Positions 4,673 to 49,824 of a stretch of DNA of 64,000 bases are shown here, in pieces. Numbering within the stretch: position 1 is the first letter of the stretch; each line of letters opens with the position of its first letter. Where the stretch lies: contig NZ_CP115463.1 in NCBI RefSeq assembly GCF_027912495.1, forward strand, positions 124,001 to 188,000, in the 5' to 3' direction. Both the position numbers and the translations under genes were made by a program. Under the pieces are notes generated by a model that searched no databases, was not told the DNA's origin, and worked only from the letters and a program-made list of their open reading frames with translations. The stretch is from Caulobacter sp. NIBR1757. Lineage in GTDB: Bacteria; Pseudomonadota; Alphaproteobacteria; Caulobacterales; Caulobacteraceae.

Positions 4673-4696
4673 ATGAATATGTCTAGACATATTCAT
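4673..4696. repeat. Perfect 24-bp palindrome, copy 1
   Basis: Half-site ATGAATATGTCT followed by its exact reverse complement, centred on TCTAGA. It is AT-rich in GC-rich surroundings. An identical 24-bp palindrome occurs at 49801-49824. The length and perfect dyad fit an operator for a dimeric or tetrameric DNA-binding protein, but no matching regulator is identified. Confidence 0.9.
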
Positions 4697-4903
4697 CGGC
4701 CAAGACGGGCCGACTGCGCGCGGAAGCCGGCCCTGCCTGGACCCGGTGGCGAATGTGGGCCCCGGCAGACCAACATTCCCGGCGTCCATACCAACCGCGC
4801 ACCTACGCGCCGGCCCACGGTCCCAGCGCCCGGACCCACGGCAAAGCCAACGGGACAAGGGATTGCGCCGGCCAAAGGCCGTCATCGCCTTTTTTGTAGC
4901 TGA
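4673..4903 (+). CDS. Candidate small ORF starting in the palindrome (copy 1)
   Basis: An ATG inside the palindrome opens a 76-codon frame beginning MNMSRHIHRP, with a Pro/Arg-rich middle and ending shortly after GQGIAPAKG. The second copy (minus strand, 49585-49824) opens a 79-codon frame with the same first ten residues and GQPLAPQG; both have Gly61-Gln62, and the indel between them keeps frame. There is no clear ribosome site and the composition is unlike a folded protein. It may be only the reading of a conserved DNA element. Low confidence as a gene. Confidence 0.22.
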   Translation: MNMSRHIHRPRRADCARKPALPGPGGECGPRQTNIPGVHTNRAPTRRPTVPAPGPTAKPTGQGIAPAKGRHRLFCS

Positions 4904-4942
4904 GGCCGGCGGCGGTATAATGGTAGGCCGCTTCGATAGGCC
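4853..4942 (+). other. Conserved distal block of the composite repeat, copy 1
   Basis: Starts with GGACAA-N4-TTGCGCC, 156 bp after the palindrome, and ends with GGTATAATGG-N2-GGCCGCTTCGATA at 4914-4938. The same pieces occur in the same order next to the second palindrome near 49.6 kb, on the opposite strand. The 299 bp between the gene at 4644 and ptsN hold nothing else that I recognise. Confidence 0.7.
4894..4921 (+). promoter_or_regulatory. Possible sigma70-type promoter in the composite repeat
   Basis: TTGTAG, a 16-bp spacer and a perfect TATAAT at 4916-4921. It points toward the 3' end of ptsN, so a transcript from it would be antisense to ptsN. The TATAAT is conserved in the second copy, where it points toward hemD. 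No transcript evidence. Confidence 0.4.
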
Positions 4943-4943
4943 T

Positions 4944-5408
4944 TCACGCCGCCGAAGGCTGGGCTTCCCGCTCGAGCAGCGACAGGATCAGTTCCGGCGA
5001 GCGGGCCTGGCGCAGTTGGGCCCGCAGGTCAGCCTGGCGCATCAGCCGCGAGACGCGGGCCAGGGCGCGCAGGTGCTCGGACCCGGCATCGGCCGGGGCC
5101 AGCAGGGCGAACAGCAGATCGACCTTGGCGCCGTCGACGGCTTCATAGGCGATGGGAGATTCCAGGCGCACGAACACCGCCTGCATCTGCTCCACGCCCT
5201 CGATCCGCGCATGCGGCACGGCGACGCCGTGGCCGACACCAGTCGAGCCGGCAGCCTCGCGCTCCAGCAGGGCGTCGAGCACCGCCGTCTGGTCGAGGCC
5301 CCAGGTGCGGGCCGCGACGTCGGCGATGACGGACAGGACCTGGCGCTTCGACCCACCGCTCGCCCGGGGGACGATGGCGCGGGGATCAAGCAATTGACCG
5401 ATGTTCAT
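4944..5408 (-). CDS. ptsN: PTS IIA-like nitrogen regulatory protein PtsN (EIIA-Ntr)
   Basis: A 154-residue EIIA domain. The start is placed at the ATG that gives MNIGQLLDP, the usual PtsN N-terminus; the longer frame upstream has atypical composition. The phosphorylatable histidine is His66 in VAVPHAR. PtsN is the last protein of the nitrogen phosphotransferase relay (PtsP-NPr-EIIA) and usually regulates K+ transport, stress or carbon/nitrogen balance through its phosphorylation state. It follows hpf on the minus strand, the common rpoN-hpf-ptsN arrangement. Confidence 0.92.
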   Translation of the reverse strand: MNIGQLLDPRAIVPRASGGSKRQVLSVIADVAARTWGLDQTAVLDALLEREAAGSTGVGHGVAVPHARIEGVEQMQAVFVRLESPIAYEAVDGAKVDLLFALLAPADAGSEHLRALARVSRLMRQADLRAQLRQARSPELILSLLEREAQPSAA

Positions 5409-48816: not shown

Positions 48817-49518
48817 TCAGAGCAGATTAAGCAGGGAAGTCTCGTTGGGAAACGGGGCGACGGCGATCTTCGCATTTTCCAGGGCGCGAAGCGGGGCGGC
48901 GACGGCCTCGGACAGGGCCAGCAGGCGCAAATGCGGGGCGGGATGGGCGGTCAGGGCCCGGGCGAGCAGGGCCGAGGCCCGGGGCGAGTGGGTGAGGACG
49001 ACGGTGATCTGACGGAGTTTCGACAGGGCCGGGCCGGGATCGACCGGGACGGTGTCGTAGAGGGCGACGGCGCGGGCGGACAGGCCCCGGGCGGTGAGGT
49101 CGCCCGTGAGGTCGCCGGCCGGATGCAGGGCCCCGGCATGCAGGATGGGCCCCGGATCGGCGGCGGCGATGAGGCCGGCGAGGGCGGCGACATCGCCGTC
49201 GGCCGACCGCACGGTCCCGAAGCCGGCGGCGCGGGCCGCCTCGGCGGTGGCCTCGCCGACGGTGAAGGCCGGCGGGCGGGCGCCGGTCAGGGCGGCGAAG
49301 GCGCGAACCCCCTGGGCGCTGGTGAAGGCGACGGCGGCGACGCCGGTCAGGTCGAAGGTCGCGTCCGCCAGGGTCCGGGCCTCGAGCAGCGGCGCGGTCA
49401 GCGGCGTCCATCCCATCGCCCGAACCCGGCCGGCCGTCGCCGAGGCGCCGGGCTCGGCGCGGGTGATCCAGACGAGAGGCGAGGGCTTGGGCACGGGCGC
49501 AGGCTGGCCGGTCCGCAT
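48817..49518 (-). CDS. hemD: Uroporphyrinogen-III synthase
   Basis: 233 residues, weakly conserved as is normal for HemD, but with VWITRAEPGASATAGRVRAMG at the start, VAFTSAQGVRAFA and VGEATAEAARAAGF, and VLTHSPRASALLA. It cyclises hydroxymethylbilane to uroporphyrinogen III. The usual upstream neighbour hemC is 13 kb away here. A TATAAT element on the minus strand at 49564-49569 could supply a new promoter. Confidence 0.88.
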   Translation of the reverse strand: MRTGQPAPVPKPSPLVWITRAEPGASATAGRVRAMGWTPLTAPLLEARTLADATFDLTGVAAVAFTSAQGVRAFAALTGARPPAFTVGEATAEAARAAGFGTVRSADGDVAALAGLIAAADPGPILHAGALHPAGDLTGDLTARGLSARAVALYDTVPVDPGPALSKLRQITVVLTHSPRASALLARALTAHPAPHLRLLALSEAVAAPLRALENAKIAVAPFPNETSLLNLL

Positions 49519-49542
49519 CCCCCGATCAATCCCCCTTCCACC

Positions 49543-49644
49543 GGCTTATCGAAGCGGCCCCCCATTATACCCCCTCTGCATTTTTCAAGGTGGCGAAACC
49601 GCGGTCTTCCGGTGCGCAAAGCCTTGGGGCGCAAGGGGTTGTCC
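49543..49644 (-). other. Conserved distal block of the composite repeat, copy 2
   Basis: Minus strand: GGACAA-N4-TTGCGCC starting at 49644, 156 bp from the palindrome exactly as in copy 1, then GGTATAATGG-N2-GGCCGCTTCGATA at 49547-49571. The distance between the two parts is 12 bp longer than in copy 1. It lies 25 bp upstream of hemD. Confidence 0.7.
49564..49569 (-). promoter_or_regulatory. Candidate -10 element for hemD
   Basis: Perfect TATAAT on the minus strand, ~45 bp before the hemD ATG. The nearest -35-like sequence (TTGAAA) is only 13 bp away, too close for a standard promoter, so support is partial. Confidence 0.4.
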
Positions 49645-49824
49645 AGGGGATGGGGGACGGGGATCGGGTGGGGCCCCGGTGGGCCAATGGCGGGGGCGTG
49701 GTGGGCGCCGGGTGAGGCGAAGTGGGCCGCGCGGGGGTGCGCCGGCGGGCCGGCGAGCGAGTTTTGCAGCGAAAAGAGCGTCGCGGCGCGCGCCGGGTCG
49801 ATGAATATGTCTAGACATATTCAT
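49585..49824 (-). CDS. Candidate small ORF starting in the palindrome (copy 2)
   Basis: 79 codons beginning MNMSRHIHRP, Pro/Arg-rich, with GQPLAPQG starting at codon 61. It matches the arrangement of the frame at 4673-4903. No ribosome site is clear; it may be a by-product of a conserved DNA element. Confidence 0.22.
   Translation of the reverse strand: MNMSRHIHRPGARRDALFAAKLARRPAGAPPRGPLRLTRRPPRPRHWPTGAPPDPRPPSPGQPLAPQGFAHRKTAVSPP
49801..49824. repeat. Perfect 24-bp palindrome, copy 2
   Basis: Identical to 4673-4696 (half-site ATGAATATGTCT). Confidence 0.9.

What the first reader, a model, noticed from the sequence alone, without database searches (positions are those of the whole stretch)
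4673..4942. Composite repeat with a perfect 24-bp palindrome, present twice and inverted
A perfect 24-bp palindrome at 4673-4696 recurs exactly at 49801-49824. In both places the same parts follow in the same order: 156 bp (identical spacing) to GGACAA-N4-TTGCGCC, then GGTATAATGG-N2-GGCCGCTTCGATA. The 156-bp middle has diverged almost completely. Exact spacing with diverged filler suggests selection on layout: a regulator-controlled transcription unit, a structured RNA, or a mobile non-coding unit. The two copies are in opposite orientation 45 kb apart, so recombination between them could invert the segment.
Basis: partly seen in the sequence, partly recalled or inferred. Interest (0 to 1): 0.8.

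Follow-up and report, generated by a model that had tools for sequence, protein, structure and literature searches.

The report
Scattered repeats carrying HutC operator sites
The palindrome belongs to a family of roughly ninety non-coding repeats scattered between the genes of this Caulobacteraceae genome, and its core is the same DNA site that sits in front of the histidine-degradation genes beside their repressor HutC, so one metabolic repressor may bind all over this chromosome.

Summary
The two window copies belong to a dispersed intergenic repeat family: 92 palindromes and 71 TATAAT blocks genome-wide. Of 75 T-block copies read, 59 have the palindrome 218-304 bp upstream, mostly in four spacing clusters 11-12 bp apart. 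The "diverged middle" hides CC[TCA]AC pentamers every 11-12 bp on a C-rich strand. GGACAA-N4-TTGCGCC is not a family part (2 of 59). The palindrome core TATGTCTAGACATA is the probable HutC operator: the exact site lies 28 bp upstream of hutF beside hutC; in 33 of 33 relatives whose sites are listed, one lies within 1.6 kb of a HutC gene, though 14 of 62 HutC genomes lack it. The family occurs in 7 of 390 Caulobacteraceae genomes, shows no recent copying and favours gene 3' ends (27 of 59 between convergent genes). Most likely: an old BIME/Correia-like mosaic repeat that carries a HutC operator, kept because HutC binds it, perhaps as a gene-end roadblock beside a Rho-type tract. HutC occupancy and function are inferred; the array's ligand and the T-block's role are unknown.

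The parts
4673..4938 (+). copy A, complete element (266 bp, palindrome to T-block; class with 241-bp spacing), between the stop of a 148-aa ORF (ends 4644) and the convergent ptsN (stop at 4944)
4673..4696 (.). 24-bp perfect palindrome; the HutC operator core TATGTCTAGACATA is 4678-4691
4755..4759 (+). inverted half-site GTGGG (GTNGG module) of copy A
4770..4851 (+). phased CC[TCA]AC array of copy A: starts 4770, 4791, 4802, 4814, 4835, 4847 (steps 21, 11, 12, 21, 12)
4853..4869 (+). GGACAA-N4-TTGCGCC: shared only by the two window copies, not a family part
4914..4938 (+). T-block GGTATAATGGTAGGCCGCTTCGATA, right end of copy A
49547..49824 (-). copy B, complete element (278 bp; class with 253-bp spacing), T-block about 28 bp upstream of hemD (start 49518)
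49801..49824 (.). 24-bp perfect palindrome / HutC operator of copy B
49668..49726 (-). phased CCCAC array of copy B: starts 49726, 49705, 49683, 49672 (steps 21, 22, 11)
49628..49644 (-). GGACAA-N4-TTGCGCC of copy B: not a family part
49547..49571 (-). T-block GGTATAATGGGGGGCCGCTTCGATA of copy B

Best explanation
The two sites are members of an old, dispersed, non-coding intergenic repeat family with a fixed mosaic layout: (1) a HutC operator palindrome at the left end, (2) a linker with an inverted GTNGG half-site, (3) a C-rich, G-poor array of CC[TCA]AC pentamers every 11-12 bp, (4) a right-end block TATAAT...CGCTTCGATA. Shown: the layout, its copy number, its gene-end location, its restriction to one group of relatives, the near-perfect palindrome core in this genome, and that this core is the site conserved beside hutC/hutF. 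Inferred: HutC binds the copies; the family spread in an ancestor as a non-autonomous repeat (in the manner of BIME or Correia elements, with HutC in the place that IHF has there) and has since stayed at fixed loci because HutC binding is under selection in this lineage. The most likely working effect, weakly supported, is at gene ends: a bound HutC dimer, at a median of 32 bp past the stop codon, acts as a roadblock next to a rut-like C-rich tract that could load Rho, so that read-through into the neighbour becomes sensitive to the HutC inducer (urocanate, by recall). The ligand of the array and the role of the T-block are not known.
For: Copy number and layout. The 16-bp core is exact at 85 places and has <=2 mismatches at 96 in this genome. 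Counting from the T-blocks, so without choosing on the palindrome: of 71 T-blocks (<=3 mismatches), 50 have a perfect core 150-340 bp upstream, 5 one mismatch and 16 none (>=5 mismatches), nothing in between; 0 of 75 on the downstream side. HutC identity: one HutC in this genome (TIGR02018, 266 bits, cut-off 220; GntR + UTRA domains) beside hutF, with TATGTCTAGACATA exact 28 bp upstream of the hutF start and 21 of the 24 element bases shared there. In the genus, in each of the 33 other genomes whose sites are listed, one site is on the same contig and within 1.6 kb of a TIGR02018 match (places compared by hand; in G233 that match is partial and below cut-off). The Pseudomonas HutC consensus TGTA-N2-TACA (PMC12977541, passages) is a similar palindrome. 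Phased array: CC[TCA]AC 246 seen against 102 in shuffles; 44 pairs at 12 bp against 0.5. Gene ends: palindrome within 60 bp after a stop codon in 33 of the 39 copies that follow a gene end; convergent neighbours 27 of 59, divergent 9. C-G excess above the 95% control level in 35 of 59 on the forward strand, 0 of 59 on the reverse.
Against: No binding or expression data. 14 of the 62 genus genomes with a HutC over cut-off have no site within 2 mismatches, so the operator varies or is absent there. In relatives, counted from T-blocks, only 6 of 15 have a core with 0-1 mismatch, one of them perfect; the high core identity is biased, because those loci were fetched by the palindrome. YC spacing in the array is only slightly above shuffled arrays (5.61 against 4.95), and CC[TCA]AC is more specific than Rho needs, so the Rho step is weak. 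20 of 59 copies have the P-side gene pointing away from the palindrome, 9 of them between divergent genes. G185 and G209 have HutC and one such site but no T-block, so elements are dispensable; G179 keeps one full element with a decayed palindrome. Element-bearing genomes are not one clade in the ptsN-region tree (3 changes; 2 in a second, poorly resolved tree), which needs losses or transfer. No mobilising enzyme was found.
Confidence: 0.47

Rival explanations
1. Selfish relic: a non-autonomous mobile repeat in which the palindrome is a transposition or maintenance signal. It may use HutC as a host factor or merely resemble the operator, and the copies have no benefit for the cell.
For: Dispersed, intergenic, clade-restricted; the place of copy A has no element in the relatives read; copies differ in modules (palindrome alone in G263 at the place of own 3524566; two inverted T-blocks without palindrome in L129; an extra inverted-repeat module in 5 copies); T-blocks absent from G185 and G209; palindrome often missing beside T-blocks in relatives.
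Against: No copy pair is recent (best full-length similarity 0.815 among 75 copies), yet in this genome the core beside a T-block is either perfect or one base off (55 of 71) or gone (16), which points to ongoing selection or conversion. The two ends are not inverted repeats (11.4 of 30 matches against 10.4 shuffled). None of 4 Y1 transposase loci holds an element.
Confidence: 0.3
2. HutC titration: the copies act as decoys that set the free HutC level and thus the sharpness of hut induction.
For: About 95 further operators for one HutC gene.
Against: Decoys alone need neither the array, the T-block, nor gene-end placement; relatives with a HutC range from no such site to 19, against 96 here.
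Confidence: 0.12
3. One reading: TATAAT is a -10 box, and HutC regulates transcription that starts at the T-block.
For: TATAAT is a perfect -10 consensus (by recall). In 21 of 59 complete copies the T-block points at a gene start, in 18 of them 12-108 bp away, including hemD in the window.
Against: In 38 of 59 the T-block runs into the end of a convergent gene, in 30 of them within 20 bp. No constant -35 sequence in the alignment consensus. The operator is about 240 bp upstream, far for a repressor.
Confidence: 0.08
4. A structured RNA made from the element.
For: GTNGG and CCNAC can pair; 2 of 23 predicted pairs show a two-sided change.
Against: Covariation term +0.16 kcal/mol, i.e. no support; no Rfam family at gathering score in the window besides two tRNAs. 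Only one class (10 distinct copies) was folded.
Confidence: 0.03

Closest known systems
HutC operator (GntR/UTRA family repressor of histidine utilisation)
   Same: Palindrome core identical to the site upstream of hutF beside hutC in this genome, and conserved beside hutC in relatives; similar palindrome to TGTA-N2-TACA of Pseudomonas (PMC12977541, passages).
   Different: About 90 further copies inside a repeat. Reconstructed HutC regulons in Proteobacteria are small (PMC5343134, passages; the HutC table row reads 113 regulons and 7.6, column heads not seen); P. aeruginosa has 172 candidate sites from a matrix scan, with low-affinity binding shown for six, not a repeat family (PMC12977541, passages).
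Correia elements / NEMIS of Neisseria (155-bp form with IHF site)
   Same: A dispersed intergenic non-coding repeat that carries the binding site of a host DNA-binding protein (PMC2229807, passages).
   Different: Correia elements have terminal inverted repeats and TA termini; here the two ends are unrelated and the protein is a metabolic repressor.
CIR1-CIR4 intergenic repeats of Caulobacter
   Same: Conserved intergenic repeats in the same bacterial group, mobility unexplained (PMC2229807, passages).
   Different: CIR are ~110 bp, two inverted-repeat arms with a conserved GANTC site; here 240-330 bp, GANTC in only 14 of 59 copies.
REP/BIME of enterobacteria and pseudomonads
   Same: Mosaic modules in both orientations, gene 3'-end and convergent locations, GTRG-like pentamers (by recall).
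   Different: None of the 4 Y1 transposase loci of this genome holds an element.
Rho utilisation (rut) sites
   Same: C-rich, G-poor tract with cytosines every 11-13 nt over 78 nt, as defined in PMC6407284 (passages).
   Different: A specific CC[TCA]AC pentamer and a fixed layout, which the rut definition does not ask for.

Membership tests
HutC operator | HutC repressor encoded in the genome | tested here: met
   one protein over the TIGR02018 cut-off, GntR + UTRA domains
HutC operator | same site upstream of hut genes beside hutC | tested here: met
   exact TATGTCTAGACATA 28 bp upstream of hutF
HutC operator | site conserved near hutC in relatives | tested here: met
   33 of 33 other genomes with listed sites. 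The listing was cut: 50 of 75 genomes have a site; 14 of 62 genomes with HutC over cut-off have none within 2 mismatches
HutC operator | HutC binds and an inducer releases it | not testable with these tools
   needs EMSA or ChIP
REP/BIME | associated Y1 (RAYT) transposase flanked by the repeat | tested here: not met
   4 Y1 matches in the genome, none of the 4 loci (about 1.5 kb each side) holds palindrome, T-block or GTAGGTCG
MITE (Correia-like) | terminal inverted repeats | tested here: not met
   left 30 bp against reverse complement of right 30 bp: mean best 11.4 matches, shuffled 10.4, 59 copies
MITE (Correia-like) | target-site duplication | tested here: inconclusive
   no clean empty site seen; the copy A place in relatives holds another gene
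CIR repeats | conserved GANTC in ~110-bp inverted-repeat arms | tested here: not met
   GANTC in 14 of 59 copies; length 240-330 bp
Rho-dependent terminator | 78-nt C>G tract on the strand of the upstream gene | tested here: met
   forward strand above the 95% control in 35 of 59, reverse in 0; upstream gene in sense in 39 of 59
Rho-dependent terminator | cytosines or YC dimers every 11-13 nt beyond composition | tested here: inconclusive
   chain length 5.61 against 4.95 in shuffled arrays
Rho-dependent terminator | termination lost when Rho is inhibited | not testable with these tools
   needs RNA 3'-end mapping
structured RNA family | covarying base pairs | tested here: not met
   covariation term +0.16; 2 of 23 pairs with a two-sided change, one class only

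The most novel reading that the evidence does not exclude
In this lineage HutC has been turned from a local repressor into a chromosome-wide, metabolite-sensitive architectural or insulating protein: about one operator per 47 kb, most of them coupled to an 11-bp-phased array that a second, unknown protein (or Rho on the RNA) fills, marking gene ends and boundaries between transcription units.
Probability: 0.15. Interest if true: 0.85.

Novelty: new variant of a known kind. Interest (0 to 1): 0.62.

Why it matters
Bacterial intergenic repeats with host-factor sites are known, such as the IHF site of Correia elements. Here a dispersed repeat carries about ninety near-perfect operators of one catabolic repressor, held while the rest of the element diverged. 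If HutC binds them, it is a test case for how a local transcription factor becomes genome-wide, and it comes with natural controls: relatives that have HutC and no or few elements. The phased array beside the operator also points to a second binding partner that could be found by pull-down.

Tried and rejected
Protein-coding reading: copies A and B are open from the palindrome ATG by eye, but palindrome-to-T spacing is not kept modulo 3 (218, 219, 220, 228, 229, 241, 242, 253), so rejected. Structured RNA: rejected on covariation. Replication polarity: an orientation bias suggested by sampled GC skew vanished once the origin was placed by parS-like sites at 75-77 kb: with the terminus assumed opposite, the T-block points against the fork in 39 and with it in 36 of 75 copies; the skew sample is itself biased by the C-rich elements. 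RAYT mobility: not supported. Phage or plasmid carriage: no match for one copy at blastn level; T-block pattern 0 in viral contigs; 18-bp core in 1 viral contig, AT-rich by eye and without a T-block. Papers: searches listed no report of this repeat; only open-licence PMC text was searched, and the hits for 'hutc' looked like other words.

Limits: not every copy was read. Of 92 palindromes I fetched those in the visible rows plus those beside T-blocks (94 records: 78 with palindrome, 75 with T-block, 59 with both, all at <=5 mismatches); three further 16-mer sites seen (202618, 723890, 745780) and others in cut lists were not fetched. Gene calls come from a simple codon-usage script of mine, not an annotation. 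The orthologous loci were fetched by their palindrome, so the core identity there (249 of 272) is biased upward; one pair (L303) was misaligned (0 of 16) and is kept in the totals; 17 comparisons cover 14 own loci. In one search, 3 of 9 ortholog loci (L277, L279, L297) gave no T-block and were not scored. In one search, 2 of 17 T-blocks of relatives (L121, L123) had too little sequence upstream and were left out. Alignment A1 holds one copy twice (L043 and L004), so 10 distinct copies. G300, which carries one element, is a 73% complete bin and may hold a foreign contig.

Full report
Observation. Two details change: GGACAA-N4-TTGCGCC is shared by these two copies only (2 of 59 complete copies), and the distance from palindrome to TATAAT differs, 241 and 253 bp.

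Genome-wide family. The window is bases 124001-188000 of a 4,470,728-bp single-contig genome. That genome holds 92 palindromes (<=3 mismatches in 24) and 71 T-blocks (<=3 mismatches), reversed controls 0. I read 94 records: 75 with a T-block (<=5 mismatches), 78 with a palindrome (<=5), 59 with both, 218-304 bp apart. Spacings cluster at 218-220 (6 copies), 227-232 (16), 240-243 (21) and 252-256 bp (9); 7 copies lie outside. Some of the copies listed without a T-block do have a more diverged one when read (for example 276991, 1821168, 2873762). The outliers at 281, 303 and 304 bp carry an extra inverted-repeat module right after the palindrome.

Internal anatomy. The middle is a patterned sequence. 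CC[TCA]AC occurs 246 times in 59 fillers against a shuffled mean of 102; CCTAC alone 106 against 12. Distances between occurrences pile up at 11-12, 21-23, 32-33, 44-45, 56-57, 65-66 and 77-78 bp, with little between (44 pairs at 12 bp, 0.5 expected), a period of about 11 bp. The copies share ancestry, so these are not independent draws, but the register is kept across classes whose other bases differ. GTNGG pentamers are also enriched (103 against 30). Copies A and B show the array in register: offsets 97/98, 118/119 and 141/141. The array strand is C-rich and G-poor (0.415 C, 0.246 G).

The palindrome is the probable HutC operator. In five genomes with a single exact core it lies in front of hut-like reading frames (read by eye). 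In this genome the only HutC over the TIGR02018 cut-off lies next to hutF, and TATGTCTAGACATA is exact 28 bp upstream of the hutF start, with 21 of the 24 element bases shared. Across 75 genomes of the genus, 50 have a site with <=2 mismatches in 16. For 33 genomes other than our own the sites are listed, and in each of them one site is on the same contig and within 1.6 kb of a TIGR02018 match (compared by hand; for G233 the match is partial and below cut-off): 26 of these 33 have ATATGTCTATACATAT, 3 ATATGACTATACATAT, 4 the CTAG form. Against this, 14 of the 62 genomes with a HutC over cut-off have no site at this threshold, and four genomes have a second, different site (ATATGTCGCGACATAT) elsewhere. 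Element-bearing genomes carry the site many times: own 96, G263 19, G251 18, G022 15, G236 10. Pseudomonas HutC recognises TGTA-N2-TACA (PMC12977541, passages). Binding at the elements is inferred.

How well is the palindrome kept? Counted from T-blocks, without choosing on the palindrome: in this genome 50 of 71 T-blocks have a perfect 16-bp core 150-340 bp upstream, 5 have one mismatch, 16 have none, and no intermediate case exists; on the other side 0 of 75. In relatives, 6 of 15 T-blocks with enough sequence have a core with 0-1 mismatch (one perfect) and 9 have none; in G179 neither of 2. So the operator is kept strictly here and less so in the relatives. Orthologous loci that I fetched by their palindrome gave core 249 of 272, T-block 189 of 250, filler 1201 of 2079, flanking 50 bp about half, but the first figure is biased by that choice.

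Distribution and age. T-blocks (<=3 mismatches) occur in 7 of 390 Caulobacteraceae genomes, all of one genus: own 71, G251 18, G263 17, G022 17, G236 14, G179 2, G300 1; reversed control 0. Several elements are at the same place in different species, so the family is ancestral to these species. G185 and G209 have no T-block, and of the two in G179 one is a full element whose palindrome has decayed, so losses are likely; in the ptsN-region tree the element-bearing genomes need 3 changes, in a second, poorly resolved gene tree 2. Within the genome no two of 75 copies are close (best full-length similarity 0.815; random pairs 0.663; shuffled 0.596), about as similar as orthologs are (0.65-0.80 in 6 scored of 9). 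So there is no recent burst.

Location. With a simple codon-usage gene caller, no called gene overlaps an element by more than about 30 bp. Of 59 complete copies, 27 lie between convergent genes, 12 and 11 between tandem genes, 9 between divergent genes. Where a gene ends on the palindrome side, the median distance from stop to palindrome is 32 bp; where a convergent gene ends on the T side, the stop is within 20 bp in 30 of 38. Copy A follows a 148-aa ORF without Pfam match and faces the end of ptsN; copy B precedes hemD. At copy A, the relatives read have another gene (a hydrolase by eye in five of seven) and no element. At copy B, G022 and G236 share the T-block and array (the palindrome only in G236), while G251, G263 and more distant genomes have hemC before hemD without the element (read by eye). 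Both window copies thus sit at changed gene order; two cases do not prove recombination through the copies.

Mechanism. I commit to this: the repeat spread long ago as a mosaic non-autonomous element, carries a working HutC operator, and is retained where HutC binding is useful or harmless, chiefly at gene ends. There a bound dimer could act as a roadblock (roadblocking by LacI: PMC4132739, start of abstract in the listing), and the C-rich array resembles a rut site as defined in PMC6407284 (passages): forward-strand C-G excess above the 95% control in 35 of 59, reverse strand in none. Against the Rho part, YC spacing is hardly above shuffled arrays and 20 of 59 copies have no gene reading in from the palindrome side. 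The specific pentamer and its period suggest a dedicated protein that I could not identify.

Comparison with known kinds. It works like a Correia- or BIME-type intergenic repeat with a host-protein site, but it fails defining tests of each (no terminal inverted repeats; no Y1 transposase locus holding an element; no CIR-type GANTC). I therefore file it as a new variant of a known kind, not as a member of those families. Searches listed no description of it.

Noticed in passing
L016 (own 3177255), L095 (own 4183332), L098 (own 1686301), L122 (G300), L288 (G251): A ~90-bp inverted-repeat module (GGGACAnnTTGAATTGCC and its inverted partner) sits 15-28 bp after the palindrome core in 5 different elements of 3 genomes; among the loci I held it was found nowhere else with the motif used.
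   Followed up: partly
G182, G215, G134, G266 (places): A second near-palindrome ATATGTCGCGACATAT occurs once in each of four genus members, away from the HutC operator; possibly the site of another regulator.
   Followed up: no
window 48817-49571: hemC and hemD are adjacent in several relatives, but hemD stands behind the element and without hemC directly before it here and in G022 and G236.
   Followed up: partly
own 3371222-3371580 (L092); L129 (G236): Two T-blocks in opposite orientation: in L092 they flank one palindrome, in L129 they flank one array without a palindrome, which shows that modules can be shared or rearranged.
   Followed up: no
L303 (G263) against own 3524347-3524589: At the corresponding gene end G263 has only the palindrome, without array and T-block, where this genome has a complete element.
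   Followed up: partly
own 74980-76623: Three parS-like sites TGTTTCACGTGAAAC cluster here, which places the origin roughly 50 kb before the window.
   Followed up: yes
own 3922167, 671917, 4178914, 648576 (L197-L200): Four Y1-type (IS200/RAYT-like) transposase matches, three over the Pfam cut-off; none of the four loci holds the element.
   Followed up: yes
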